DNA from: JALSIF01 sp026981635 [NCBI: bacterium]
GTDB lineage: Bacteria > 4484-113 > JALSIF01
NCBI GenBank assembly: GCA_026981635.1
Contig: JALSIF010000274.1
Coordinates: 1 to 11,133 of the forward strand
Length of the DNA stretch: 11,133 bases
Direction: 5' to 3'
The translations under genes were made by a program, and so were the position numbers. Each line of letters starts with the position of its first letter. Within the stretch, counting starts at the first letter, position 1. Below are positions 1 to 11,133 of the stretch, one piece after another. The notes beneath the pieces were generated by a model that was not told where the DNA came from, made no database searches, and was given only the letters and a program-made list of their open reading frames with translations.

Positions 1-1
1 C

Positions 2-100
2 AGCTTCGGGGTTGAGCTGGAGCCTGAGGTGATCTACCTCGGGCCGGCGGAGGAGGCGGTGGTCTACCTCTATGGCCAGGACTACCCCTTTGCGTACTGA
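2..100 (+). CDS. murB: UDP-N-acetylenolpyruvoylglucosamine reductase (MurB), C-terminal end only
   Basis: The open frame entering from the left edge ends at a TGA at 98-100 and encodes the last 32 residues of a protein. Its first residues, FGVELEPEVIYLG, match the C-terminal strand typical of MurB (the FGVxLEPEV pattern). MurB is the NADPH/FAD enzyme that reduces UDP-GlcNAc-enolpyruvate to UDP-MurNAc in the cytoplasm. After that strand the protein carries about 19 extra residues ending in YPFAY, a tail longer than I expect for MurB. The tail is encoded mostly where the frame overlaps the start of ddl by 29 bp. A position directly before ddl and ftsQ is where murB commonly sits in dcw clusters. 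The assignment rests on one short motif plus context, because the FAD-binding and catalytic regions lie outside the window. Confidence 0.72.
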   Translation, partial: SFGVELEPEVIYLGPAEEAVVYLYGQDYPFAY

Positions 101-1109
101 TCTAATCGGTACCACCCGGGCCCCGCGCCTGCTCCGGCTGGTGGAGAACACCGAGAAGCACCGCGCACAACTGAGGTCCCTCAACATCGCGGTGGTGGCG
201 GGGGGCTTCTCGGAGGAGGCGGAGGTAAGCCTCAAAAGCGGCACCTCGGTATATCACGCCCTCCTCCAGCGGGACTACCGGGCTGAGCTGATTGAGCTTG
301 GTCCCATGAACCGGGGCCAGATCAGCCGGCTGATTGAGTTTGACCTGGCGGTGAACATGCTCCACGGCGCCTTCGGGGAGGACGGCTCCTTTGAGGGGCT
401 GTGCCGGATGCTGGGCATAAGGAGCCTGGGCAGCCCGGTGGAAGCGGCCGCCCTCACCTTCAACAAGGACCTCACCAAGCGGATCTTTACCGCCATGGGT
501 ATCCCCACCCCTCCCTGGACAGCCATCCGCAGCCGCGAGGAGCTGGAGGCCAAGCGGGAGAGGCTGGCAGAGCTGGGTCCCCCCTGGGTGGTGAAGCCCA
601 TGGCCAGCGGCTCCTCCATCGGGGTAAGGCAGGTGGGAAGGGGCGAAGATCTCTCCGCCGCAGTGGAGAAGACCCTGGCGGAGTTCCGCGCCGCGGTGGT
701 GGAGAGCTACATCCCCGGAAGGGAGCTGACCGTGGCGGTGGTGGGAGTAAAGGAGCCCTTCGCCCTGCCGGTGGTGGAGATCGCTCCCAAGGAGGGCTGG
801 TATGACTACCGCCACAAGTACGAGAAGGGGGCCACCGAGCTGATCTGCCCCGCCCGCCTGGAGAGGCGCATCGCCGAGCGGTTGATGGCCCTGGCCGAGG
901 AGGCCTACACCGCGCTGGGGGTGCTGGTGCTCGCCCGCTTTGACGTACGCCTGGGAGAGGACGGGGAGGCCTTCTTTCTGGAGGTAAACACCATCCCCGG
1001 GTTCACCTCCACCAGCCTCTTTCCCACTGCCGCCGAGGGGGTGGGGCTGGGCTATGGGGAGCTGATTGAGTGCCTGCTATATCTGAGCTACTTTGAAAAG
1101 GAAGGCTGA
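72..1109 (+). CDS. ddl: D-alanine--D-alanine ligase (Ddl)
   Basis: This ATP-grasp enzyme joins two D-alanines in the cytoplasm to make the dipeptide that MurF adds to the peptidoglycan precursor. The 345 residues show the family signatures in order: GG-SEEAEVSLKSG (about 44-57, with the glutamate that binds the first D-Ala amino group), LHGAFGEDGSFEG (97-109), VVKPMASGSSIGV (173-185, ATP-binding loop), YDYRHKYEKG (244-253, omega loop with the tyrosine typical of D-Ala-D-Ala rather than D-Ala-D-Lac ligases), and EVNTIPGFTSTSLFP (304-318, Mg-ligating Glu and Asn). The ATG at 72 is the only ATG before the core. It gives a 36-residue Arg/Thr-rich N-terminal extension ahead of the usual start near NIAVVAGG. 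AGGAGG at 51-56 lies a rather long 15 nt upstream. A GTG at 141 is an alternative start without a good ribosome binding site. The gene overlaps murB by 29 bp and ftsQ by 17 bp, so translational coupling is likely. Confidence 0.94.
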   Translation: MARTTPLRTDLIGTTRAPRLLRLVENTEKHRAQLRSLNIAVVAGGFSEEAEVSLKSGTSVYHALLQRDYRAELIELGPMNRGQISRLIEFDLAVNMLHGAFGEDGSFEGLCRMLGIRSLGSPVEAAALTFNKDLTKRIFTAMGIPTPPWTAIRSREELEAKRERLAELGPPWVVKPMASGSSIGVRQVGRGEDLSAAVEKTLAEFRAAVVESYIPGRELTVAVVGVKEPFALPVVEIAPKEGWYDYRHKYEKGATELICPARLERRIAERLMALAEEAYTALGVLVLARFDVRLGEDGEAFFLEVNTIPGFTSTSLFPTAAEGVGLGYGELIECLLYLSYFEKEG

Positions 1110-1854
1110 GGAGAGCCTGCGCAACCTGCTGGTGGGGGCGGTGCTGGTCCTGCTGGCAGTTTCGCTGGTGGTCTGGCTGGTGAGGGGAGGCTACCTCTGG
1201 TTTGTCCCCCAGCGGTTGGCGGTGGTGCGGATTGAGGGCCATTTTGTCTACCCGGGGAGGGAGCTCATCAACCGATCCGGTCTCCGCCTGGACCACCCCC
1301 TCACTCCCCGCGACCTTGCCCTGGCCCGCCAGAGCCTTGAGGAACTCCCCCTGCTGGAGCGGGCGCGGATGCGCTGGCGGAGGGGGGGGCTGACCATCTC
1401 GGTAAGGGAGCTTCTGCCCGTCGCCCTGGTCAAGGTCTCCGGTGCCTACTACCTGCTGCTGGAGGACGGGCGGGTGATTCCCCGGGAGGCGGCCGAGGGG
1501 AGGGAAGCGGTGCTCGCCCGCCTGCGCACCGTGCCCACCCTGGTGCTCAGCGACCCCCTGCAGAAGGAGGACAGCGTACTGCTCAGCAAGGCCCAGCGGG
1601 CGCTGGCTGCGGCGGTGGCCTTCGGCCGGCCGGTGGCCAGATACCTGCGCCTCACCGAGCAGGGGGAGCTGGTGCTGGAGCTCAAGGACGGCTCACGCAT
1701 TGAACTGGGCAGCCAGGCGGATGGTCTTGAGCTTAGGGTAGTGAGGGGGATTGAGGTGTGGCGCGCCCTCCACAGCCGGAGCCGGGGCGGACCGCTGAGC
1801 ATTGACCTGGCCACCTCCGAGGGGGTGGCCTATGTTAAGTTAGAAAGAAGCTAG
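1093..1854 (+). CDS. ftsQ: cell division protein FtsQ (POTRA-domain, DivIB family)
   Basis: FtsQ/DivIB is a bitopic membrane protein that helps hold FtsB/FtsL and regulates septal peptidoglycan synthesis. The 253-residue product has the expected layout: a basic cytoplasmic tip (MKRKAEESLR), one transmembrane helix at about 11-30, then an extracytoplasmic POTRA domain (about 43-107) starting LAVVRIEGHFVYPGRELI. A beta domain follows with YYLLLEDGRVIP (119-130), matching the FtsQ/DivIB 'D-G-x-v-i' strand. The start is TTG at 1093, which overlaps the ddl stop by 17 bp. It keeps the positive residues before the helix, whereas the next candidate (GTG at 1132, after AGGAGAG at 1108-1114) would remove them. 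An uninterrupted run of eight G at 1382-1389 lies in the coding sequence. Position between ddl and ftsA supports the call. The sequence family diverges fast, so the identification rests on topology, POTRA pattern and context. Confidence 0.88.
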   Translation: MKRKAEESLRNLLVGAVLVLLAVSLVVWLVRGGYLWFVPQRLAVVRIEGHFVYPGRELINRSGLRLDHPLTPRDLALARQSLEELPLLERARMRWRRGGLTISVRELLPVALVKVSGAYYLLLEDGRVIPREAAEGREAVLARLRTVPTLVLSDPLQKEDSVLLSKAQRALAAAVAFGRPVARYLRLTEQGELVLELKDGSRIELGSQADGLELRVVRGIEVWRALHSRSRGGPLSIDLATSEGVAYVKLERS

Positions 1855-1870
1855 GAGAGCCAGTCGCCAG

Positions 1871-2431
1871 ATGGAGCCGCACACCACAGACTCGCCCGCT
1901 GCCCGCTGGGTCACCCTCGCCTTGGGACTGATCGCCCTTGCCCTCACCATCGGGGTATTGGCGGCCACCAACCCGGCGGGAGGGGCAGGAGGCAGGCTTA
2001 AAACCATGCTCTCGCAGGCCGGCTACCTGCCCCTCTCCGGCCCCGGCCTGGTCATCACCCTTGACGACAGCGGCGACCCCACCCGCGGGGAGGAGGGGAT
2101 TCTGCACGAACAGGACCTGCTCATGCTGATAAACGAACTGCGGGCGGCCGGGGCCAGGGCCATCTCCATCGGTGACGGCAAGCGGGAGGAGCGCATCACC
2201 GCCCTCTCCACCGTGCGCTGCGTTGGTCCGGTGGTGCTGGTCAACCAGACCCAAATGGTCCCCCCCCTCACCATCAAGGCGCTGGGTGATCCGGAGAGGC
2301 TGATGGCAGCCCTCTCCACGGCGGGGGGGGTGGTGGACCTGCTCAGGGCGGCGGGGCTCAAGATCTCCCTGGGGGGGCGCGACCATCTCACCCTACCCGG
2401 ACAGCCCGGGGTGGAAGGAGGAGAGTGGTGA
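1871..2431 (+). CDS. DUF881 family membrane protein (YlxW/YlxX-like), division-cluster associated
   Basis: This 186-residue protein has a single N-terminal transmembrane helix (about 13-31) and an extracytoplasmic DUF881 domain. Recognisable family features are GPGLVITLDDSGDP (57-70), HEQDLLMLINELRAAGARAISIGD (79-102, the most conserved block), the RCVGPVVLVN strand (116-125) and PPLTIKALGDPERL (131-144). Bacillus ylxW/ylxX proteins of this family also sit beside ftsA-ftsZ, and no biochemical activity is established for them. Two points differ from many family members. The segment between the helix and the domain is short (about 32-56) with no evident coiled coil. The usual ING motif reads IGDGKREE. 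The start ATG at 1871 follows AGGAGA at 1853-1858 (12 nt spacing), 16 bp after the ftsQ stop. A run of eight G lies at 2323-2330. The stop TGA overlaps the ftsA start as GTGA. A role in division or envelope assembly is inferred only from position. Confidence 0.85.
   Translation: MEPHTTDSPAARWVTLALGLIALALTIGVLAATNPAGGAGGRLKTMLSQAGYLPLSGPGLVITLDDSGDPTRGEEGILHEQDLLMLINELRAAGARAISIGDGKREERITALSTVRCVGPVVLVNQTQMVPPLTIKALGDPERLMAALSTAGGVVDLLRAAGLKISLGGRDHLTLPGQPGVEGGEW
2416..2421 (+). promoter_or_regulatory. ribosome binding site for ftsA (AGGAGG)
   Basis: A perfect AGGAGG core within GGAAGGAGGAG precedes two consecutive GTG codons at 2425 and 2428. Spacing is 3 nt to the first and 6 nt to the second, so the GTG at 2428 is the more plausible start. 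That start gives a GTGA overlap with the stop of the preceding gene. Confidence 0.7.
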
Positions 2432-3702
2432 GCGGGGAGGTGTTTGCCTGCCTGGACCTGGGCTCCTCCAAGCTGGCCGCCGCAGTGGTCCAGCGCGCCC
2501 CCGATGGCCGGCTCTGGGTCAAGGGGGTCAGGGTTGAACAGAGCTCGGGCATCCGCAAGGGGACCATCCGCGACCTGTCGGTGACCACCAGGGAGGTGGA
2601 CGCCGCCCTCTCGGGAGCGGCCTACGCCGCCGGCCTGAGCCCCCGCCAGGTCTGGGTAGTCCTGAACTGTCCCCACATCCTCTCCCTCGCCCGCCGGGCC
2701 AGCCTAAGTTTAGAGAACGGGGGCGAGGTTAGTGAGGAACACCTGTCGGCCCTGCGTGAAAGAGCCCGCCCTGCCGAGATCCCTGCCGGCTATGGGGTGA
2801 TTGACCAGCTGGCCAGAAGCTATACCATTGACGATGAAGAGATCACCGGTTCGCCGGTGGGCATGTACGGCCGCCGGCTGGCCGGGGAGTTCCTCTTTCT
2901 GCTCGGCCCGGAGGCCCAGATCCACAACCTGGAAAAGGTTCTCTCCCAACTGGACCTGGAACTGGCCGGCCTCATCTACGCCCCGCTGGCCGACGCCATC
3001 GCCCTGACCACCCGCGAGCAGCGGGAGGCGGGGGTGCTGGTGATTGACCTGGGGGCGGGGGTGACCAGCTTTGCCCTCTACCTGGACGGTTCCCTGCTCT
3101 CCTGTGGGGCGGTGCCGGTGGGCAGCCGCAACTACGACCTGGACATCAAGCACGGCCTGGGGGTGAGCCTAGAGGAGGCCACCCGCATCAAGCAGACCTA
3201 CGCAAGGGCCTACTTCCCCGAGGGCTCGCCGGAGCTGGAGGAAAACATTGAGGTGCGCCACTACGGCAAGCGCCACTTTGAGCGGGTAAGGAAGGCGGAG
3301 CTGGCCCAGATCATCAACCCACGCACCGAGGAGCACATTGAACTGCTGGCCGAGAAGCTCTCCGACCAGCCCCTGGAGGAGGTGCGCGCCGGGGCGGTGC
3401 TCTGTGGCGGGGGGGCAAAGCTTAGGGGGATTGACCAGCGGATCGCCGGGAGGTTGGGCATCCCGGTGGAGGTTGGCCGGATCGGCTCCTTTGCCCACCT
3501 GTCGGAGGAGTACCGGGGGCCGGAGATGGCCAGCCTGATCGGTAGTGTACTCATGCTCCAGGATCACCCCGAGCGGACGGCAGAGGCGGACGGGGGCGAT
3601 GGAGGAGGGCTGATTGCCCTGCTTGAGCGGCTAAATGAAGTGGGCCTCAGCCTCTGGGAGTGGTTCTCCCGCACCGTGCTGGGGGCCCGCAGGGAGCCTT
3701 AG
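2428..3702 (+). CDS. ftsA: cell division protein FtsA (actin-like Z-ring membrane tether)
   Basis: FtsA is an actin-family ATPase that binds the FtsZ C-terminal peptide, anchors the Z-ring to the inner membrane and recruits later division proteins. The roughly 424-residue product shows the actin-fold nucleotide motifs: LDLGSSKLAA (phosphate 1, about 9-18), VIDLGAGVTSFAL (phosphate 2, about 205-217) and AVLCGGGAKLRGI (adenosine loop, about 323-335). The 1C subdomain lies between about 83 and 163. The C-terminus ends in a linker and an amphipathic helix, EVGLSLWEWFSRTVLGAR, the expected membrane-targeting sequence. The stretch reading GSRNYDLDIKHGL (about 232-244) replaces the more usual GG-hiT-DIA pattern, so the nucleotide-pocket region is somewhat divergent. 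The GTG at 2428 is preferred over GTG at 2425 on ribosome-binding spacing. The gene is translationally coupled to the DUF881 gene and followed by a 67-bp gap before ftsZ. Confidence 0.94.
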   Translation: MSGEVFACLDLGSSKLAAAVVQRAPDGRLWVKGVRVEQSSGIRKGTIRDLSVTTREVDAALSGAAYAAGLSPRQVWVVLNCPHILSLARRASLSLENGGEVSEEHLSALRERARPAEIPAGYGVIDQLARSYTIDDEEITGSPVGMYGRRLAGEFLFLLGPEAQIHNLEKVLSQLDLELAGLIYAPLADAIALTTREQREAGVLVIDLGAGVTSFALYLDGSLLSCGAVPVGSRNYDLDIKHGLGVSLEEATRIKQTYARAYFPEGSPELEENIEVRHYGKRHFERVRKAELAQIINPRTEEHIELLAEKLSDQPLEEVRAGAVLCGGGAKLRGIDQRIAGRLGIPVEVGRIGSFAHLSEEYRGPEMASLIGSVLMLQDHPERTAEADGGDGGGLIALLERLNEVGLSLWEWFSRTVLGARREP

Positions 3703-3727
3703 ACCGGCCCTCCCCCTGTGCTAGTAT
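3700..3727 (+). promoter_or_regulatory. candidate ftsZ promoter with extended -10
   Basis: In the ftsA-ftsZ gap, TAGACC (3700-3705, 4 of 6 to TTGACA) is separated by 16 bp from TAGTAT (3722-3727, 4 of 6 to TATAAT). The -10 is preceded by TGC (3719-3721), giving the extended TGn element. Transcription would begin near 3734, leaving a leader of about 36 nt before the ATG at 3770. The -35 lies over the ftsA stop codon. An ftsZ-proximal promoter would let FtsZ be made in excess of FtsA. This is a by-eye match only. Confidence 0.45.
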
Positions 3728-3769
3728 CCTGTCTAACTTCTGCCCCCACGGGCATCAGCGAGCACTGCC

Positions 3770-4987
3770 ATGGGAAAGATTCGCGAGAACGACAAGCTTT
3801 CCGCCTCCCCCCGCCGTCCCGGGGCCAACCTGATCGTGATCGGCGTGGGCGGAGCCGGCTGCAACGCAGTTGACCGCATGCTGGAAGACGGGGTGGAGGG
3901 GGTGGAGTTTATTGCCCTCAACACCGACTTCCAGCAGCTGGAACGCTCCAACGCCCCGCTCAAGATCCAGGTGGGGAGGGACCTCACCAAGGGCCTGGGA
4001 GCGGGAAGCGACCCCGAGATCGGCCGGCGGGCGATGGAGGAGAGTCGGGCCGAGGTGGCAGAACACCTGGAGGGGGCCGACATGGTCTTCGTCACCTGCG
4101 GGATGGGTGGCGGAACCGGCACCGGCGGAGCCCCCATCGTGGCCGAGGTGGCCCGGGAGATGGGCATCCTCACCGTCGGAGTGGTGACCAAGCCCTTCTC
4201 CTTTGAGGGCCGCCAGCGGATGCGCAAGGCGGAGCAGGGGATTGAGGAGATGCAGAGCGCAGTGGACTCCCTCATCGTCATCCCCAACGACCGCCTGCTC
4301 ACCATCGCCGAGCAGACCATCCAGCTCAAAGAGGCCTTCCGGCTGGCCGACGAGATCCTCAAGCGGGCGGTGCTGGGGATAACCGACCTCATCCTCAGGC
4401 CCGGCCTTATTAACCTGGACTTTGCCGACATCCGCACCATCATGAAGGACAGCGGCAAGGCGCTGATCGGGCTGGGCGAGGCAAGCGGGCCAGACTCGGT
4501 GATGGAGGCGGTAAGCACCGCCATAGAAAGCCCTCTGCTGGAGACCTCCATTGAGGGGGCCACCGGCCTCTTGATCAACTTCTCCGGCCCCGAGGGGATG
4601 AGCCTCAACCAGATCGCCCAGGCGGCCGAGCACGTCCAGCAGATGGTGGACGAGGAGGCCAACATCATCTTCGGTGCCCAGATCATCCCCGAGCTGGAGG
4701 ACCGGGTGAGGGTGCTGGTGCTGGCCACCGGGTTCAGCGGCGAGCCCCGCCCCCTGATCCGCGACACCCGCCGCAGGCGGGAAAAGAAGCACACTCCCCC
4801 CACCCTCCCCACCTCCTCCCAGCCCTCCCCCACCCAGGGGAAGGGAAAGGAGGCCAAGGCCGCCGGCTTCAAGGAGACCAGCCCCTCCGCCGACCGTCCG
4901 GTGGAGCGCTCCGCCGGTGAGGGAGGCGAGGTGGAGGACGAGCTAGACGTGCCCACCTTCCTGCGCCGCAGCACCAGGAAGCGCTAG
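3770..4987 (+). CDS. ftsZ: cell division protein FtsZ (tubulin-like GTPase)
   Basis: FtsZ polymerises into the cytoplasmic Z-ring that organises septation. The 405-residue product has the nucleotide-binding core [14 protein letters not shown] (24-37), the tubulin signature GGGTGTG (113-119), the NDRLL segment (173-177) and the synergy loop [11 protein letters not shown] (215-225), whose acidic residue completes the GTPase site of the next subunit. The C-terminal domain runs to about 322. A disordered, charged linker of some 65 residues follows (about 325-389). The end, [10 protein letters not shown] (391-400), is the conserved peptide that docks on FtsA, SepF and other partners. The linker DNA contains a G/C-rich imperfect palindrome at 4812-4853. 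The ATG at 3770 has no strong Shine-Dalgarno; it is chosen because it gives a normal-length, basic, unstructured N-terminus and follows the promoter candidate. yggS begins 3 bp after the stop. Confidence 0.97.
4812..4853. repeat. imperfect palindrome inside the ftsZ linker coding region
   Basis: The left arm (4812-4830) is pyrimidine-rich and the right arm (4837-4853) purine-rich, separated by CACCCA. CTCCCC/GGGGA pairs form next to the loop, then CCC with GGG (4823-4825 with 4843-4845), then CCTCC with GGAGG (4812-4816 with 4849-4853), with a small internal asymmetric bulge. It is translated in frame as part of the Pro/Ser/Thr- then Lys-rich FtsZ linker. The look is that of dispersed pyrimidine/purine palindromic repeats known from many bacterial genomes. 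Whether this one is repeated elsewhere in the genome cannot be judged here. Confidence 0.5.
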
Positions 4988-4990
4988 CCC

Positions 4991-5713
4991 ATGCCCCAGG
5001 GGGCTGGTGAGCGCTACCGGTGGCTATGCGAGCGGGTAAGGGAGGTGGCCGGGGGCCGCCCCATAAGGATCGTCGTTGCCACCAAGTATGCCAGCGATGA
5101 ACAGGTGACCGAGGTGCTCCGGGCGGGGGCCCGGGAGCTGGGGGAGAACTACCCAGAGCGGGCAAGGGAGCGGTTTGAGCTCCTTTCTTCCCAGGGGTTC
5201 AGCTTCACCCGCCATCTCATCGGCCCCCTGCAGTCAAAGAAGGTGAAGCTCATCTGGGGCCTGGTGGACCTCCTCCAGACCCTGGCGCGGGAGAAGACCC
5301 TGCGGCTCATTGAGCGCACCAAACCGCCCGGAGCAGCGCCACTGGATGTGCTGGTTGAGGTAAACATCGCCCGCGAGCCCACCAAGCACGGGGTGATGCC
5401 GGAGGAGTGCATGAGCTTCTGCCGGAAGGTGGCAGATTCGGAGGCGGTGAGGCTTAGGGGGCTAATGGCCATCCCGCCCAAGCCGGAGAGGCCCTCCGAC
5501 AGCCGCCCCTGGTTTCAGGCGATGGTAGAATTGTATGGGCAGGCAAGGAAGGGGTACCTATCTCCGGACAACCCGGTTGACCTCCTCTCCATGGGGATGA
5601 GCCTAGACTTTGAGGAGGCCATCCGGGCGGGGGCCAACATGGTCCGGATCGGAAGCCTCCTGTTTTCCTCGCCCGCCCCAAAGAATCTGTCTGAGCGAGG
5701 TGCTGGACAGTGA
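4991..5713 (+). CDS. yggS: YggS family pyridoxal-phosphate homeostasis protein
   Basis: YggS/PLPBP proteins carry PLP on a single-domain TIM barrel of the alanine-racemase type without a known catalytic reaction. They buffer the PLP pool and affect amino-acid metabolism. In this 240-residue protein the PLP Schiff-base lysine is Lys32 in VVATKYAS. Other family marks are ELGENYPERARERFE (49-63), HLIGPLQSKKVK (75-86, with Lys in place of the usual Asn of LQxNK), VNIAREPTKHGV (124-135), LRGLMAI (155-161) and LLSMGMSLDFEEAIRAGANMVRIGSLLF (198-225), which holds the phosphate-binding segment. The start ATG at 4991 lies 3 bp after the ftsZ stop without a clear ribosome binding site, so reinitiation is likely. 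Its location between ftsZ and sepF repeats the arrangement seen in Firmicutes (ylmE) and actinobacteria. The stop overlaps the sepF GTG start by 4 bp. Confidence 0.95.
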   Translation: MPQGAGERYRWLCERVREVAGGRPIRIVVATKYASDEQVTEVLRAGARELGENYPERARERFELLSSQGFSFTRHLIGPLQSKKVKLIWGLVDLLQTLAREKTLRLIERTKPPGAAPLDVLVEVNIAREPTKHGVMPEECMSFCRKVADSEAVRLRGLMAIPPKPERPSDSRPWFQAMVELYGQARKGYLSPDNPVDLLSMGMSLDFEEAIRAGANMVRIGSLLFSSPAPKNLSERGAGQ

Positions 5714-6123
5714 GACTATGGGATTGGGCACTGAATCTGTTTGCCGGACCAGACGAGGAGGGGGAGCTCATTGAGCTGCCCCAGTCCACCAGGGGGGAGG
5801 CTGGCCGGGAGGGGGAGCTCAGGCTGGAGCTTTCCCGCCCCCCCCAGATCAACGTGCTGGTAGCCCGGCCCACCCTAGACCAGGGAGTTCCCACCGACGA
5901 CCTCAACTACTACATTGACCGGCTAAGGAGCGGCTGTCAGGTGATCGTAAACCTCTCCGAGCTTGCCGCCCACGACCCGGAACGGGCCCGGCGCATCTAC
6001 GATCAGCTGGAGGGGGCGCGCATCGCCCTGGAGGGGAAGAGCGTGGAGATCGGGCACCAGGTCTACCTTTTTGCCCCTCCGGGAACCGAAATTGAACTAG
6101 ACGAGCCCCCACCGGCGGTATAA
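5710..6123 (+). CDS. sepF: cell division protein SepF
   Basis: SepF is a cytoplasmic dimer that binds the FtsZ C-terminal peptide and anchors the ring to the membrane through an N-terminal amphipathic helix. This 137-residue protein starts with MRLWDWALNLFAG, a short Trp-containing amphipathic helix of the right kind. An acidic linker (about 14-44) follows. The SepF core lies at 47-129: INVLVARPTLDQGVPTDDL, the strand QVIVNLSELAAHDPERARRIYDQLEG (77-102), then ARIALEGKSVEIGHQVYLFAPPGTEIE. The N-L-S and E-R-A-R-R-I-D pattern fits the family well, although the start of the core (RPTLDQGVPTDD) is more divergent. The start is the GTG at 5710, overlapping the yggS stop as GTGA, with GAGG at 5697-5700 as a modest ribosome binding site. 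It completes a yggS-sepF pair downstream of ftsZ, as in Gram-positive lineages. FtsA is also present, so the cell likely has two Z-ring tethers. Confidence 0.9.
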   Translation: MRLWDWALNLFAGPDEEGELIELPQSTRGEAGREGELRLELSRPPQINVLVARPTLDQGVPTDDLNYYIDRLRSGCQVIVNLSELAAHDPERARRIYDQLEGARIALEGKSVEIGHQVYLFAPPGTEIELDEPPPAV

Positions 6124-6144
6124 GGGGTAAACCGAGCGGACCCC
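6124..6144 (+). other. small hairpin immediately after sepF stop
   Basis: GGGGT (6124-6128) pairs with ACCCC (6140-6144), and CC/GG (6132-6133 with 6138-6139) can pair within the loop. The hairpin begins on the base after the sepF TAA. No T-run follows, so it does not qualify as a classical intrinsic terminator; it may stabilise or define a 3' end. The rest of the 92-bp gap to rnj shows no promoter that I would call with confidence. Confidence 0.3.
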
Positions 6145-6215
6145 AAGCCGCCCCCGGCCAAAAAGGGCATGAGAGCCTAGCCTGAAAAATCCACCGACAC
6201 AAGGACCAAGACAAG

Positions 6216-7940
6216 ATGGCTCAGAAAGATGGTGTTTTCTACTACACCCCCATCGGGGGGACCGGTGAGATCGGCAAGAACTGCACCCTGATTGAGTACG
6301 GCGACGAGGCGGTGATGATTGACTGCGGCCTCTCCTTCCCCGACTACCGCATGTTCGGGGTAGATATCGTGGTCCCCGACTTCACCTACCCCTGGAACCT
6401 GGGGGGGAGACTCAAGGCCATCCTCATCACCCATGGCCACGAGGACCACATCGGCGCCCTGCCCTACTTTTTGCGCAAGGCCAACCCCAAGCCCCCCATC
6501 TATGCCACCCGCCTCACCCGGGCGATGATCCACTCCAAGCTCCAGGAGTGGGACCTGCACACCGAGGTGGAGCTGATTGAGATCGCCCCCGGCGAGGAGC
6601 ACTGGATCGGCCCGTTTAGGGTCAACTCCTACCGGGTGACCCACTCCATCCCCGACTCGGTCTCCTACTCCATCACCACCCCGGCGGGGACCTTCTTCTT
6701 CAGCGGCGACTTCAAGCTTGACCCCAACCCCATTGACGGCCACTTCACTGAGATGGAGCGCATCGCCGCCCTGGGCCGGGAGGGGGTGCTGGCGGCAGCC
6801 ATAGACGTCACCCGCTCCGACCGCCCCGGCACCACCCCCAGCGAGTCCACCGTTGGCCCCGCCCTGGAGGAGGTCTTTAGGGGCCACCGGGGAAGGATCT
6901 TCACCACCACCTTCGCCTCCAACGTCCACCGGGTCCAGCAGATCATCAACGTGAGCGAGAAGTACCGCCGCAAGGTGGCCATCGTGGGCCGTTCCATGAT
7001 CAAGAACTTCAACATCGCCAAGAGCCTGGGCTATGTGGAGGCACCGCCGGGGATCATCGTAAGCCTGGACGAGCTGGACTCCCTCCCCGACGAGCAGGTC
7101 TCCATCATCATCACCGGCAGCCAGGGGGAGCCCCTCTCCGCCCTAGCCCGGGTGGCCCGTGGCGAGCACCGGGACATAAAGCTGCGCAAGGGTGACCTGG
7201 TGATCTTTTCCGCCAGCCCCATCCCGGGAAACGAACTGGCCATCTACCGGGTGGTGGACCGCCTCTACGAGATGGGAAGCGACGTCATCTTCGGCGACGA
7301 GTACGGGGTCCACGTCTCGGGCCACGCCGCCCAGGAAGATCTTCGAGCCTTCGTCAACCTGATCCAGCCCAGGTTCATCCTCCCCCAGCACGGCGACTAC
7401 CGCCACCAGATGCGCTTTAAGAAGCTGGTCCAGCAGATGGGCTGGCAGGAGGAGCAGGTGGCCATCGTCAAGAACGGCCAGCGCTGGGAGGTCTCCGCCA
7501 CCGGCCTGCGCAAGGCGGGCACCGTCCCCAGCGGGGCGGTCTACATTCACGTGGAAAGCGGCGGCGACCTAGGGGCCCGCCACATTGAGGAGCGCCAGGA
7601 GCTGGCCGAGGCGGGGGTGCTGGTGGTCTCGGTGGCCCTGGACCCCAGGCGGGGCCTGATAACCTCGGAGATAGAGTTTCAGGCGCGGGGCTTCTTCACC
7701 GAGGAGGAGCGCCCCGACCTCTACCAGCGCCTGCGCAGTCGGGTGGAGGACCTGATCTACCGCTACGATCTAGGCGACCCCAACCAGCGAGACGAGCTCC
7801 GGCTCAACCTTGAGCAGGAGCTTCGGGGGATGCTAAGGGAGGAGTACGGGCTGGAGCCAGAGGTGATTTCCGCCCTAAGCTACCTCGTCCCCACTGGCCG
7901 GCCCCACCACCAGGTCCCCACCACCCAGCGGGGTAGATGA
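6216..7940 (+). CDS. rnj: ribonuclease J (metallo-beta-lactamase/beta-CASP RNase)
   Basis: RNase J is a zinc-dependent enzyme with 5'-3' exonuclease and endonuclease activity that matures rRNA and degrades mRNA. The 574-residue product has the RNase J layout. The metallo-beta-lactamase part carries ILITHGHEDHIGALP with His73, His75, Asp77 and His78, His143 in VTHSIPDSVSY, and Asp165 in FFSGDFKLDP. The beta-CASP part includes AAIDVTRSDRPGTTPSESTVG (about 195-214), FASNVHRVQQII (233-244), GSQGEPLSALARVA (301-314) and VSGHAAQEDL (367-376). The motif LPQHGDYRHQ (389-398) supplies His392 and the 5'-phosphate-binding region. A C-terminal dimerisation domain of about 120 residues follows. The usual DSTN reads DVTR here, a deviation outside the metal ligands. 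AAGGA at 6201-6205 lies 10 nt before the ATG. The only TCGA in the window is in this gene, spanning codons for Leu376-Arg377. The stop overlaps the uppP start as ATGA. Confidence 0.96.
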   Translation: MAQKDGVFYYTPIGGTGEIGKNCTLIEYGDEAVMIDCGLSFPDYRMFGVDIVVPDFTYPWNLGGRLKAILITHGHEDHIGALPYFLRKANPKPPIYATRLTRAMIHSKLQEWDLHTEVELIEIAPGEEHWIGPFRVNSYRVTHSIPDSVSYSITTPAGTFFFSGDFKLDPNPIDGHFTEMERIAALGREGVLAAAIDVTRSDRPGTTPSESTVGPALEEVFRGHRGRIFTTTFASNVHRVQQIINVSEKYRRKVAIVGRSMIKNFNIAKSLGYVEAPPGIIVSLDELDSLPDEQVSIIITGSQGEPLSALARVARGEHRDIKLRKGDLVIFSASPIPGNELAIYRVVDRLYEMGSDVIFGDEYGVHVSGHAAQEDLRAFVNLIQPRFILPQHGDYRHQMRFKKLVQQMGWQEEQVAIVKNGQRWEVSATGLRKAGTVPSGAVYIHVESGGDLGARHIEERQELAEAGVLVVSVALDPRRGLITSEIEFQARGFFTEEERPDLYQRLRSRVEDLIYRYDLGDPNQRDELRLNLEQELRGMLREEYGLEPEVISALSYLVPTGRPHHQVPTTQRGR

Positions 7941-8863
7941 GCGAGCTTATCAAGCTCCTCCTGCTGGGCGTGGTGCAGGGGCTGACCGAGTTCCTGCCGG
8001 TAAGCTCCAGCGGCCACCTCACCGTTGGACAGCACCTCCTGGGCCTCAACGCCTCCCACAACGCTCAGGTGATCGTGGTGCTCCACCTGGGAACCATGGC
8101 CGCAGTGCTGATCTACTTCCGGCGCGATTTTGCCGCCATGGTCCTGGCCCTGCTGGGGAGGTCCCTGGGCCACCGGGAGGAGGCTCCCGCCATGGTGAGG
8201 ACAAAGCTGGGGGAGGAGGAGGTGGCCCGGGTGGTAGGAACCAGCCAGCTCCCCGCCACCTCCCGGCGATCAGCGGTAGCCCAAAACCGCCGGCTGGTCC
8301 TGCTGCTTATCTTCTCCACCCTGCCCCTGCTTCTTGCCATCCCCCTGGGGTCCCAGGTGGAGGCCCTGGCCGAGGACCCCCGCCTCCTCTGGGTGGTGGG
8401 CGTCGCCTTTCTGGTCACCGCCGCAGTAAACCTGGCCATTGATCTGGTCAGCCCCTCCCGCCCCCGCCGGGCCGATGAGATGGGCATCCTCCACGCCCTG
8501 GCGGTGGGCTTTTTCCAGCTGGTTGCCCTCATCCCGGGCATCTCCCGCAGCGGTTCCACCATCCTGGGAGGGGAGCTGGTGGGCCTTGACCGCAATGAGG
8601 CGGCCCGCTACTCCTTCCTCCTCTCCAGCATCGCCATCCTGGGCTCGGCGGTCTTCACCGCCCGGGAGCTAGGTCAGCTGGTGGAGGTGGAACCTCTCCC
8701 CCTGCTGGTGGGGTTTATCGGGGCGATGGTGAGCGGGATGCTCGCCATCCACCTGCTACTTGCCCTGGTGCGCCAGCGTTCGGTTAGATGGTTCGGTCTC
8801 TACACCGGCGCAGTGGGAGTGGTGGTGCTCATCCTGGCCCTGGGCAGTGGTGCCAGGCTCTAA
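7937..8863 (+). CDS. uppP: undecaprenyl-diphosphatase UppP (BacA)
   Basis: UppP is an integral membrane phosphatase that converts undecaprenyl diphosphate to undecaprenyl phosphate, recycling the lipid carrier of peptidoglycan synthesis; overexpression gives bacitracin resistance in many bacteria. The family motifs are clear: GVVQGLTEFLPVSSSGHL (11-28, with the (E/Q)xxxE glutamate Glu18 and the SSSGH motif) and IPGISRSGSTILGGELVG (199-216, with Arg204 matching the catalytic arginine). Several hydrophobic helices cover the remainder, including the last at about 286-303. The protein is 308 residues, against roughly 265-275 for common members. The excess lies in a polar loop at about 78-117 (RSLGHREEAPAMVRTKLGEE and on), between the second helix pair and LVLLLIFSTLPLLL. 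The ATG at 7937 overlaps the rnj stop by 4 bp. A lipid-kinase-like gene begins 9 bp after the stop. Confidence 0.96.
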   Translation: MSELIKLLLLGVVQGLTEFLPVSSSGHLTVGQHLLGLNASHNAQVIVVLHLGTMAAVLIYFRRDFAAMVLALLGRSLGHREEAPAMVRTKLGEEEVARVVGTSQLPATSRRSAVAQNRRLVLLLIFSTLPLLLAIPLGSQVEALAEDPRLLWVVGVAFLVTAAVNLAIDLVSPSRPRRADEMGILHALAVGFFQLVALIPGISRSGSTILGGELVGLDRNEAARYSFLLSSIAILGSAVFTARELGQLVEVEPLPLLVGFIGAMVSGMLAIHLLLALVRQRSVRWFGLYTGAVGVVVLILALGSGARL

Positions 8864-8872
8864 AATCCCCCC

Positions 8873-9511
8873 GTGGCTCACCTTCCCGTGGGGGCAACTT
8901 TCAGTCGGCCGCTGCGCAAGCTGGCCCACATCTCGGGCGGCCTACCCCTGCTCCTCCTTCCCCTCTTCGTGGACGGCCTGCCCGAGACGGTGGTGGCCTA
9001 CCTGCTGGGCTCCCTCTACCTGGTCTTCTTCCTTTGGGTGGCCGCCTTTCCCCGGCCGGTGGCCCGCCTCTTCCACCGCCTAGTAAAACCGGGTGAGGCG
9101 GAGCAGGGACTGAGGGGAGCCAGCGCCTACTTCTTCGTCCTCAGCGCCGATCTTCTTATCCTGGCGCCGCTGGTGGGGCTAAAGCCTGCCGCCCTGGCCG
9201 GGATGATGCTTACCTTCGGCGACGGTTTCTCCGCCCTGGTGGGGAGGAGGGAGGCCCCCACCTGGCCCTGGAACCCCTCCAAAACCATCTGGGGAAGTGT
9301 GGGCTTCGTCATCTTCACCTCCCTGGCCTGGCTGACCTTCCTGGGGCTGGCCGGCTACCCCCTCACCACCCGGCTGGCCCTGGTGAGCCTGGTCGCAGCG
9401 CTTGTTGGCGCCCTGCTGGAGTCCCTGCCCCTGGAGGATGTGCTGGATGACAACCTGGTGGTGGGACTGGGGGGAATGGTCCTCGCCACCCTGGCGGTGG
9501 GGATGCTCTGA
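8873..9511 (+). CDS. CTP-dependent polyprenol/phytol/diacylglycerol kinase-like membrane protein (DolK/VTE5/DGK1 superfamily)
   Basis: This 212-residue polytopic membrane protein has about five to six hydrophobic helices. It carries the marks of the dolichol kinase / phytol kinase / yeast Dgk1 group, which uses CTP to phosphorylate lipid alcohols: RKLAHISGG (15-23, the R-K-x-x-H-x-x-G start), LTFGDGFSALVGRR (113-126, GDG-A-G nucleotide motif), SKTIWGSVGFVIF (136-148, the K-t-x-x-G-s motif), and LLESLPLEDVLDDNLVVGLGG (181-201, the E-DN motif near the last helix). The start is GTG at 8873; GTG at 8888 would remove five residues, and neither has an obvious ribosome binding site. The gene lies 9 bp after uppP and its stop is 4 bp from the stop of the convergent gene. 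Substrate cannot be read from sequence. The pairing with uppP suggests undecaprenol or another isoprenoid/lipid alcohol of envelope metabolism; phytol-like chains or diacylglycerol are alternatives. Confidence 0.78.
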   Translation: MAHLPVGATFSRPLRKLAHISGGLPLLLLPLFVDGLPETVVAYLLGSLYLVFFLWVAAFPRPVARLFHRLVKPGEAEQGLRGASAYFFVLSADLLILAPLVGLKPAALAGMMLTFGDGFSALVGRREAPTWPWNPSKTIWGSVGFVIFTSLAWLTFLGLAGYPLTTRLALVSLVAALVGALLESLPLEDVLDDNLVVGLGGMVLATLAVGML

Positions 9512-9519
9512 GGGCTCAG
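9508..9519. repeat. inverted repeat spanning two convergent stop codons
   Basis: CTGAG (9508-9512) and CTCAG (9515-9519) flank GG. The plus-strand stop TGA (9509-9511) lies in one arm and the minus-strand stop (9516-9518) in the other, with only 4 bp between the two genes. The stem is too short and lacks T-runs for a confident terminator call, but this is the sole non-coding junction available to end both transcripts. Confidence 0.3.
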
Positions 9520-10211
9520 GCGCTGCAATACTGCCACTCGGCGATGTGGATCAGCCAGTAGCGGCCATCGCCGTCGCCCTTGAAGTAGAAGCGGAGGGTG
9601 TGGCCCTCGCCGTGGTAGGTGAGGCGGAAGTCCACCCCCAGTTCGCGGGCCGCCACCGCCTCCTCAATCTCGCTCTCCCCGAAGGAGGAGGGGTCCTGAC
9701 TGACCAGGTCAATGAAGGCGCCGATGATGGTCTCTTCCAGCTTGGGTCGGTCCAGGCGGAAGATCCCCACCACCCCGGGGTCGCGGTAGGCCTCCCTAGA
9801 GCAGTCATAGGCCACCGGCTCCCCCAGCCTCACCCGGATAACCTCCTGCTTCTCGTACCAGGGCGAGGTAAGTGCCCCCAATTCGGGGCTGAAAAGTTCA
9901 CTCAGGTTGCCATTTGGTCCCAGCCAGCGGGTGGGGAGGATGAAGGCCCCCGGCTGCTGCCAGAGGGTAAGGCCCCAGTCGGGGTGGATGAGCCTGGCCA
10001 GGGCCTCGCCGTCCTCGGTGGCTATCGCCTCCAAGAGGTCGCCCACCGTGTCAATCAGCCGGCTGTCAAACTGGCTGGTGGCCACCGGCAGCTCAATCCG
10101 CTCGGCCGAGGCGGGGATGGGAAGAAGCAGGAGCAGACCCGAAGCTACCACCAGCCACAGAGAAAGCAGGAGGGGCAGAAGGCGGTTGCGCGGCTGGTTG
10201 ACCTCCCCCAT
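9516..10211 (-). CDS. exported protein of unknown function, signal peptide present
   Basis: I do not recognise the family. The 231-residue product begins with a classical signal peptide: basic MGEVNQPRNR, a long hydrophobic core (about 11-32), and a likely signal-peptidase I site after Ala-Ser-Ala (PIPASA-ER, about 36). No lipobox cysteine is visible. The mature part starts with a helix FDSRLIDTVGDLLEAIATEDGEALARLIHPDWGL (about 48-81). Later segments are PGVVGIFRLDRPKLEETIIGAFIDL (145-169) and a C-terminal pair of strands HTLRFYFKGDGDGRYWLIHIAEWQYCSA. A helical start followed by a closing beta-sheet is reminiscent of NTF2-like secreted proteins, but that is a guess. Cys137 and Cys229 could form a disulfide. 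The ATG at 10211 is chosen over one at 10286 because the strong Shine-Dalgarno at 10219-10226 and the signal peptide both begin there. It is convergent with the kinase-like gene and divergent from the next gene. Confidence 0.8.
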   Translation of the reverse strand: MGEVNQPRNRLLPLLLSLWLVVASGLLLLLPIPASAERIELPVATSQFDSRLIDTVGDLLEAIATEDGEALARLIHPDWGLTLWQQPGAFILPTRWLGPNGNLSELFSPELGALTSPWYEKQEVIRVRLGEPVAYDCSREAYRDPGVVGIFRLDRPKLEETIIGAFIDLVSQDPSSFGESEIEEAVAARELGVDFRLTYHGEGHTLRFYFKGDGDGRYWLIHIAEWQYCSA

Positions 10212-10218
10212 GAAGAAT

Positions 10219-10226
10219 TCCTCCCC
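10219..10226 (-). promoter_or_regulatory. ribosome binding site of the minus-strand exported protein (GGGGAGGA)
   Basis: Read on the minus strand, GGGGAGGA ends 7 nt before the ATG at 10211-10209. It fixes this internal ATG as the start rather than the in-frame ATG at 10286, which would add 25 residues and displace the signal peptide. Bases 10224-10226 also belong to the inverted repeat around the promoter. Confidence 0.7.
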
Positions 10227-10250
10227 AGGGTGATTATATGCACACCTGGG
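10224..10250. promoter_or_regulatory. inverted repeat enclosing a -10 element (operator candidate)
   Basis: CCCAGG (10224-10229) and CCTGGG (10245-10250) are exact complements centred at 10237. Inside them GTG (10230-10232) and CAC (10241-10243) extend the symmetry with a one-base offset. The enclosed AT-rich core contains TATAAT on the minus strand. A dyad with its centre on the -10 is a typical placement for a repressor site, but no regulator gene is in the window. Confidence 0.35.
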
Positions 10251-10262
10251 AAAAGATCTGAA
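10233..10262 (-). promoter_or_regulatory. candidate promoter for the minus-strand exported protein
   Basis: On the minus strand TTCAGA (10262-10257, 4 of 6 to TTGACA) is followed after 18 bp by a perfect TATAAT (10238-10233). Initiation would fall near 10226, at the 5' edge of the Shine-Dalgarno, giving a very short leader of about 15 nt. Confidence 0.5.
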
Positions 10263-10285
10263 CCGATTCTTCCCCTGGCGAGTCA

Positions 10286-10291
10286 TATAGT
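10286..10291 (+). promoter_or_regulatory. candidate -10 for the plus-strand exported protein (TATAGT)
   Basis: TATAGT matches TATAAT at 5 of 6 positions and would place the start of transcription near 10298, about 24 nt before the ATG and upstream of the AGGAG at 10311-10315. No convincing -35 lies 16-18 bp upstream, so this is weak. The bases belong to the 110-bp region shared with the divergent gene. Confidence 0.28.
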
Positions 10292-10321
10292 TCAGCAGGA
10301 ACCCCCCACCAGGAGTTTAGG

Positions 10322-10936
10322 ATGGCCAGAAAGAAGGCTCTGTTCACTCTCGTCGTGGGGGCGCTGGTGGCCCTCGCTTCCCCTGCCCTGGCCAGCTACA
10401 ACCCCCGGGGCTGGATGCCGGGGGACGTAGTACCTAACTACCGCCACATCCAGCAAAGCTACCCCGCCAGCCAGGGAGAGATGCTCCCCTACCAGTGCAA
10501 CCCGCTGGGCTTTACCCGCCACCTCTTCCGGGGTGGCCGGCTGGTGAGCATCCCCCCCTGCCCGGGGGAGAGCTTCCGCTTCAGCTTTGGCAGGGGCCTT
10601 AAGCTTAGGAACCTCTATCAGCCTCCCTTCCCGCCCGGCCAAGAGGTGGTGGCGGTGCCCGACGGGCCGGTCTACCGCCTCTACCTGCGCGACCCCCTCA
10701 CCGGCACCCTCTCCTTCACGGGGATAAACACCAGCCGGGTGAGGCCCTACCTTCCCCCCATCTACCGGCCCTACCCCTACCTTGCCCCGCCCTACGGGGG
10801 AGGCTACTACTACCTGCCCGGCTACTTTCCCCCCCACCCCTATTACTCCCTCTATCTTCCCCCCTACGCCCGCTACTCCTTCTCCGCCTCCCTTGACCTG
10901 GGACGGGCAAACCTCAACCTCCACTTCTGGCGCTAG
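10322..10936 (+). CDS. exported Tyr/Pro-rich protein of unknown function
   Basis: No family is recognised. The 204-residue product starts with a clear signal peptide, MARKKALFTLVVGALVALA, with likely cleavage after Ala-Leu-Ala (about residue 24). The mature part has a middle region with two cysteines (Cys60 and Cys80) and alternating short strands (about 55-135). A striking low-complexity segment at about 142-184 is made almost entirely of Tyr, Pro, Gly and Leu with repeated YxPP/PPY and GGGYYY-like units. The final 20 residues, YSFSASLDLGRANLNLHFWR, look like two amphipathic beta strands ending in an aromatic. Such Y/P/G-rich secreted segments are found in surface, sheath or spore/cell-coat proteins, so a structural or envelope role is possible but not shown. 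AGGAG at 10311-10315 lies 6 nt before the ATG. It is divergent from the other exported protein and shares its regulatory region. Confidence 0.8.
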   Translation: MARKKALFTLVVGALVALASPALASYNPRGWMPGDVVPNYRHIQQSYPASQGEMLPYQCNPLGFTRHLFRGGRLVSIPPCPGESFRFSFGRGLKLRNLYQPPFPPGQEVVAVPDGPVYRLYLRDPLTGTLSFTGINTSRVRPYLPPIYRPYPYLAPPYGGGYYYLPGYFPPHPYYSLYLPPYARYSFSASLDLGRANLNLHFWR

Positions 10937-10983
10937 CCGGGAAAGGGCCGGGGCCCTGAAAAGTGGGGCCGCCAGGGGCAGGT

Positions 10984-10992
10984 TGATAGAAT
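10984..10992 (+). promoter_or_regulatory. extended -10 for the transketolase gene (TGATAGAAT)
   Basis: TGA precedes TAGAAT (5 of 6 to TATAAT), forming a TGn-extended -10. The expected transcription start near 10999-11000 is only about 3 nt from the ATG at 11003, and no Shine-Dalgarno is present, so a nearly leaderless message is suggested. There is no good -35, which extended -10 promoters may not need. Confidence 0.4.
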
Positions 10993-11002
10993 CAGCCCCA
11001 CG

Positions 11003-11133
11003 ATGATTGACCAGGAGCTGAGAGATACCGCTGGTGCGCTGGGTTGGGACATTGAGAAGCTTCGCCGGATGGCCAAGCTCATCCGCCGCGATGTCCTCAT
11101 CCAGGTGACCAACGCCCAGTCGGGTCACCCCGG
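11003..11133 (+). CDS. transketolase, N-terminal end (probably a split N-terminal subunit)
   Basis: The frame starting with ATG at 11003 is open to the window edge and gives 43 complete codons. The sequence KLRRMAKLIRRDVLIQVTNAQSGHPG contains the thiamine-diphosphate enzyme motif xSGHPG, with its catalytic-site histidine, preceded by the A-xx-iRRdvi helix typical of transketolase N-termini. Transketolase moves two-carbon ketol units between sugar phosphates in the non-oxidative pentose phosphate pathway, using ThDP in the cytoplasm. The 38 residues before SGHPG are compatible with either a full-length enzyme or the separate N-terminal subunit common in thermophiles and archaea; the rest lies outside the window. 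No ribosome binding site is seen, but an extended -10 lies just upstream. The 66-bp gap before it contains a short GGCCC/GGGCC stem but no T-run. Confidence 0.85.
   Translation, partial: MIDQELRDTAGALGWDIEKLRRMAKLIRRDVLIQVTNAQSGHP

What the first reader, a model, noticed from the sequence alone, without database searches (positions are those of the whole stretch)
1..11133. Near-total absence of the tetranucleotide TCGA, with codon choice bent to avoid it
Reading every line, I find TCGA once (7343-7346, in rnj). With the composition of this window, roughly thirty would be expected by chance (a hand estimate). The other NCGA words (ACGA, CCGA, GCGA) are frequent, so neither CpG nor CGA as such is avoided, and GATC, of identical base composition, is abundant. 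Ile before Asp/Glu is written ATTGA in more than twenty places (for example 291, 1063, 1801, 3041, 6318) or ATAGA (in the codons AIDVTR and SEIEF of rnj), never ATCGA, although ATC is the usual Ile codon otherwise. GTTGA, TTTGA and CTTGA likewise replace GTCGA, TTCGA and CTCGA. The same holds in the minus-strand gene. TCGA is the site of TaqI-type restriction-modification systems of thermophiles. Two explanations compete: counter-selection by a TCGA restriction enzyme, or decay of m5C at TCGA to TTGA/TCAA.
Basis: partly seen in the sequence, partly recalled or inferred. Interest (0 to 1): 0.75.

Follow-up and report, generated by a model that had tools for sequence, protein, structure and literature searches.

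The report
Genome-wide avoidance of TCGA sites
In the parts of this bacterium's genome that could be read, nearly every copy of the four-letter word TCGA is missing, as if an enzyme that cuts DNA at that word had been policing it; this is a strong case of a known effect, and the enzyme itself was not found.

Summary
The window has one TCGA (7343) where 20 (Markov), 27 (dinucleotide shuffles) or 56 (codon shuffles of its genes) are expected. It is genome-wide: 51 against 754 expected in 389,513 readable bases of 43 stretches (O/E 0.07, lowest of 256 words). Two class relatives show none of it (1.36, 1.21). Codons bend around the word: Phe before GAN is TTT 394, TTC 1.

Selection against the word fits better than m5C decay: TCGA is depleted even as NNT|CGA, where C-to-T change gives only stop or Gln (odds ratio 0.25; relatives 7.5 and 3.1), and no C5 methyltransferase was found. 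Likeliest cause: a TCGA-cutting Type II restriction system, present or very recently lost. No TaqI-type enzyme was found; the two methyltransferases found look GATC- and GANTC-type. The bin is 85% complete and every sampled contig under 3 kb was withheld, so absence is not shown.

The depth is rare, not unique: 12 of 1028 palindrome-by-locus pairs elsewhere are at or below 0.1. Ordinary in kind, unusually clean in degree.

The parts
7343..7346 (.). the only TCGA in the window; in frame NNT|CGA (CTT CGA) of the gene at 6216-7940
1..11133 (.). TCGA-depleted stretch: 1 observed, 20 to 56 expected depending on the null
6216..7940 (+).
9516..10286 (-). minus-strand gene, also without TCGA

Best explanation
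The genome has been purged of TCGA by long and recent selection against that exact palindrome, most likely self-toxicity of a Type II restriction-modification system that cuts TCGA (the specificity of TaqI). Sites that escape methylation are cut, so silent changes that remove a site are favoured. Shown: exact-word, genome-wide, lineage-specific depletion in all three codon frames, with sites kept in tRNA T-loops. Inferred: the restriction system itself, and that it lies in the unseen part of the genome or was lost very recently.
For: O/E 0.068 (51 of 754 expected, 43 stretches); next words GTAC 0.51, CTAG 0.53, CGCG 0.53, TGCA 0.54. In 364 called genes 31 observed, 1669 expected (mean of 30 codon shuffles). 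Relatives G001 1.36 and G005 1.21; nine same-class RNase J loci pool to 215 observed, 207 expected, each between 0.78 and 1.52. NTC:NTT before GA is 20:1774, before G[CGT] 2109:1491 (odds ratio 0.008); control codons N[ACG]C/T give 1.37. NNT:NNC before CGA is 7:171, before CG[CGT] 581:3559 (OR 0.25, p 1.8e-5), the reverse of relatives (7.5, 3.1). Six of six tRNA genes found keep TCGA in the T-loop. Four low-GC, probably acquired, genes hold 4 TCGA where 5.9 are expected. Only about 2% of the NTC|GA expected from the other G contexts is present, so the selection is current or just ended (inference). Palindrome avoidance is the known mark of orthodox Type II systems (PMC4687349: sections 12 and 19, part 1 of section 21, and passages).
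Against: No match in this genome to RE_TaqI, TaqI_C, C5 methylase, N6_Mtase, Eco57I or D12; MT-A70 also none, but that search rang in no control. The two methyltransferases found look GATC-type (beside a DpnII-family endonuclease) and GANTC-type. Cores of five CRISPR spacers had no exact match in viral contigs, so no phage could be tested. NNT|CGA is less depleted (0.25) than NTC|GA (0.008) although equally easy to escape. Thermus thermophilus pTT27 (50 kb each) gives 0.58 for HB8 and 0.62 for HB27: far milder, and the two strains do not differ, so this comparison neither helps nor hurts.
Confidence: 0.75

Rival explanations
1. Decay of m5C: a cytosine-5 methylase acting at TCGA makes C-to-T change frequent, turning TCGA into TTGA or TCAA.
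For: TTGA/TCAA is the largest surplus neighbour (1137 places over an expectation with TCGA imputed). Before GA, Val shifts to GTT (20.6% against 6.1% before other G codons; relatives 21.7 against 16.7 and 9.4 against 10.6) and not to GTA or GTG; Ile shifts mainly to ATT. The doubling of CTT for Leu is seen in relatives too and says little. NNT|CGA is less depleted than the other frames. Protein composition suggests a thermophile (IVYWREL 0.452; that this marks growth temperature, and that heat speeds deamination, is recalled).
Against: No PF00145 in the searchable genome; 10 of 14 control genomes ring. NNT|CGA, whose decay products are stop or Gln, is still depleted. ACGA/TCGT, not a decay product, is in surplus (579 places, ratio 1.52; relatives 1.31 and 1.17 without imputation), though TAGA (1.35) does not exceed relatives (1.31, 1.37). 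Ile before GA also gains ATA (14.0% against 3.9%), but ATA is 17.9% before AA here, so context may explain part. Uncalled DNA, which decay should empty first, is less depleted (20 of 66) than called genes (31 of 686), although 5 of the 20 are in tRNAs, 2 in a 6S RNA match and 4 in low-GC genes.
Confidence: 0.1
2. A relic: the TCGA restriction system was lost long ago and the avoidance persists passively.
For: No cognate genes found; avoidance after loss is documented (PMC4687349, section 19).
Against: Only about 2% of the expected NTC|GA codons are present, which leaves little time since any loss (inference).
Confidence: 0.07
3. Selection against TCGA by something other than classical restriction: a regulatory or repair protein, a nuclease without a methylase, or conflict between a methylase and a methyl-directed nuclease such as the HSDR_N-SeqA-like protein on contig C157.
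For: No cognate R-M genes found; a nuclease with a methyl-reader-like domain is present.
Against: That nuclease gene is low in GC (0.35) and itself carries a TCGA, so it looks too recent to explain an old depletion.
Confidence: 0.07
4. Compositional or statistical artefact.
For: Other palindromes (GTAC, TGCA, CGCG) are moderately low in this genome.
Against: Survives Markov, dinucleotide and codon-shuffle nulls and a comparison with relatives.
Confidence: 0.01

Closest known systems
Recognition-site avoidance of orthodox Type II R-M systems (Rusinov et al. 2015, PMC4687349)
   Same: Exact palindrome, far below their 0.78 threshold (their ratio is Karlin's Kr, mine maximal-order Markov), genome-wide.
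   Different: Cognate enzyme not identified; the depth (0.07) is in the far tail, though matched by other palindromes in other genomes (12 of 1028 pairs). The lowest TCGA ratio among 75 other loci with at least 10 expected is 0.41.
TaqI-type systems of Thermus (TaqI cuts TCGA: abstract of PMC5587805 in the listing)
   Same: Same recognition word; thermophile-like protein composition.
   Different: No RE_TaqI or TaqI_C match found. 50 kb of T. thermophilus HB8 pTT27 is only mildly depleted, 0.58, and HB27 0.62; that HB8 carries TthHB8I is recalled, HB27 was not checked.

Membership tests
Type II restriction-site avoidance | observed/expected of a 4-6 bp palindrome at or below 0.78 | tested here: met
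   0.068 in 389,513 bases; Markov ratio, not Karlin's Kr
Type II restriction-site avoidance | specific to the exact word and to the lineage | tested here: met
   ACGA, CCGA, GCGA not low: 1.81, 1.09, 1.12; two class relatives 1.36 and 1.21
Type II restriction-site avoidance | cognate REase and MTase encoded in the genome or a close relative | tested here: inconclusive
   none found, but the bin is 85% complete, all 40 sampled contigs under 3 kb read N, and none of the 39 other genomes shares its family
TaqI R-M system | RE_TaqI endonuclease (PF09573) | tested here: inconclusive
   no match at E<=1; of 14 controls 2 ring (E. coli, Thermus composti), 1 over the cut-off; same limits of the bin
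TaqI R-M system | M.TaqI-type methylase (PF12950, PF07669; that these Pfam names cover M.TaqI is recalled) | tested here: inconclusive
   no match; same limits of the bin
m5C decay at TCGA | C5-methyltransferase (PF00145) | tested here: inconclusive
   none in own genome; 10 of 14 controls ring; same limits of the bin
m5C decay at TCGA | no depletion where C-to-T is never silent (NNT|CGA) | tested here: not met
   depleted: OR 0.25, p 1.8e-5; relatives 7.5 and 3.1
m5C decay or restriction | modification state of residual TCGA | not testable with these tools
   no reads

The most novel reading that the evidence does not exclude
The purge is kept up today by a TCGA-cutting enzyme that is not related to TaqI: a new restriction family in an uncultured, thermophile-like lineage with no relative of its own family among the genomes searched.
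Probability: 0.2. Interest if true: 0.5.

Novelty: new member of a known kind. Interest (0 to 1): 0.3.

Why it matters
It is a clean natural case for telling restriction avoidance from methyl-cytosine decay by codon frame, and it predicts a TCGA-specific enzyme in an uncultured lineage. The kind of effect is well known.

Tried and rejected
Composition artefact: rejected by three nulls and by relatives.

The solitary CcrM-like methylase (L148 14444-15322) as the TCGA methylase: positions aligned to CcrM base contacts look kept (against residues named in passages of PMC6787082; the numbering of the aligned chain is mine), and proteins 51-53% identical occur in G003 and G006, whose RNase J loci have 22 TCGA for 24.7 expected and 18 for 23.2, so GANTC is likelier. 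It seems to lack the CcrM C-terminal region.

The L147 pair as the TCGA system: the endonuclease is DpnII family (E 2.6e-73; that this family cuts GATC is recalled), and the best methylase relatives among 12 rows seen of at least 5000 records are plasmid proteins of Staphylococcus and Lactococcus, so GATC is likelier; GATC is barely low (0.82).

Phage test through CRISPR spacers: five exact-core scans, no match. Redistribution of Ser codons (TCG|A) does not clearly separate decay from selection. 16S was not found and the organism could not be named; the named loci are at most 46% identical in RNase J.

Literature: the listings (no paper) show no paper on TCGA avoidance in such a genome; I saw listings only, except PMC4687349 (sections 12 and 19, part 1 of 2 of section 21, and passages) and PMC6787082 (passages). 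One search was for CcrM.

Full report
Observation. TCGA occurs once in the 11,133-base window, at 7343, against 20.1 expected by a maximal-order Markov model, the lowest ratio of all 256 words, 27.5 in 200 dinucleotide shuffles and 56.3 in synonymous-codon shuffles of the 12 called genes, where the smallest of 2000 shuffles gave 39.

Genome-wide. The window is contig C274 of a 1.75 Mb, 317-contig, 85%-complete bin. I asked for 82 further stretches; of the 83 with the window, 40 read wholly N, all under 3 kb, and were dropped, leaving 43 stretches and 389,513 bases. There TCGA is seen 51 times against 754 expected (0.068); next come GTAC 0.51, CTAG 0.53, CGCG 0.53, TGCA 0.54. In 364 called genes there are 31, against a mean of 1669 in 30 codon shuffles. 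Genes were called by my own codon-usage script, not by a gene finder.

Relatives. Two class relatives of near GC content (200 kb each) show 748 against 551 and 1247 against 1031. Nine same-class RNase J loci pool to 215 against 207, ranging from 0.78 to 1.52 one by one. The depletion is thus not shared by the class; no genome of the same family was among the 39 other genomes, so its age within the lineage is unknown.

Codons. In the first 28 readable stretches (279 genes), Phe before GAN is TTT 394, TTC 1; before other G codons 483 and 351. Ile before GAN is ATT 433, ATC 10, ATA 72; before other G codons 138, 855, 40. In the larger set NTC:NTT before GA is 20:1774 against 2109:1491 before other G codons, while codons without a middle T show no loss (odds ratio 1.37).

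Decay or selection. In the frame NNT|CGA deamination gives a stop or Gln, so it cannot silently remove sites. Yet NNT:NNC before CGA is 7:171 against 581:3559 before other CGN (odds ratio 0.25, p 1.8e-5); in relatives the ratio goes the other way, 7.5 and 3.1. Against this, the frame is less depleted than the others, and C-to-T products take most of the lost codons of Ile, Phe (which has no other) and Val, so a contribution of decay is not excluded. With TCGA imputed, the neighbour surplus is largest for TTGA/TCAA (1137 places) but also clear for ACGA/TCGT (579), which decay does not make; relatives have milder surpluses of both, and CCGA and GCGA show deficits. No cytosine-5 methylase was found.

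Where TCGA stays. Six of six tRNA genes found in the 43 stretches keep it in the T-loop; one of these, tRNA-Phe, lies inside a called ORF and so counts among the 31 coding sites. Of 20 sites outside called genes, 5 are in tRNAs, 2 in a 6S RNA match (Rfam was run on 16 of the 43 stretches) and 4 in low-GC genes that look acquired; four such genes together hold 4 sites against 5.9 expected. The pattern is that of old native DNA purged, functional RNA exempt, new arrivals not yet purged; the numbers behind the last point are small.

The enzyme. Families for TaqI endonuclease, TaqI-type methylase, Eco57I, N6_Mtase, D12 and C5 methylases gave no match in this genome; MT-A70 neither, but that search rang in no control. 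Two N6_N4 methylases were found: one beside a DpnII-family endonuclease, and one solitary and CcrM-like. Neither is a good TCGA candidate. The bin is incomplete and small contigs were withheld (I assume searches do not see them either), so absence of a TCGA system is not shown. Only about 2% of the expected NTC|GA codons are present; hence my inference that the selection is current or only just over.

How unusual. Depth near 0.07 is rare but not unique: of 1028 palindrome-by-locus pairs with at least 20 expected, from 80 loci of other genomes, 12 are at or below 0.1, none of them TCGA; these rest on 21 to 96 expected sites each, against 754 here. The lowest TCGA ratio among 75 of those loci with at least 10 expected is 0.41. 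Site avoidance of orthodox Type II systems, and its persistence after loss, is well documented (PMC4687349). I therefore file this as a new and clean member of a known kind.

Noticed in passing
L148 7010-8110 (-), G000:C157: 366-aa protein with a type I R N-terminal nuclease domain (HSDR_N, E 5e-12) and a C-terminal SeqA domain (PF03925, E 9e-6, just over its cut-off; weak SeqA hits in PDB, best E 0.07). Low GC (0.35). It may be a methyl-adenine-directed nuclease.
   Followed up: partly
L147 622-2487 (+), G000:C275: A beta-class methylase next to a DpnII-family endonuclease with no alpha-class (D12) methylase found in the genome; GC 0.47 and 0.35 in a 0.64 genome, so probably acquired; GATC is hardly avoided (0.82).
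   Followed up: partly
G000, 43 stretches: GTAC (0.51), TGCA (0.54) and CGCG (0.53) are moderately depleted here but not in class relatives G001 and G005 (0.91-1.02), hinting at further past restriction systems.
   Followed up: no
L114, L073, L108, L098, L091: Other genomes' loci with near-absent palindromes: L114 GGCC 0 of 21 expected and GATC 1 of 53, L073 ACGT 0 of 24, L108 CTAG 0 of 22, L098 CGCG 1 of 46, L091 GGCC 5 of 96.
   Followed up: no
L220 (G000:C77), L241 (G000:C270 1-460), L021 6076-7113 (-): Cas1 gene with a following ORF that looks like Cas2 (by eye), a CRISPR array from which five spacers were read, and a Csx1/Csm6-like CARF-HEPN protein.
   Followed up: partly
G000 proteins and tRNAs: IVYWREL fraction 0.452 against 0.389 and 0.392 in class relatives G001 and G005, and tRNA GC 0.60-0.66, suggesting a thermophile with mesophilic class mates (the link to temperature is recalled).
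   Followed up: no
L176 10279 and L225 5784: Two of the few TCGA sites outside called genes lie in TCGAAAGGAGGT, which looks like a ribosome-binding site.
   Followed up: no
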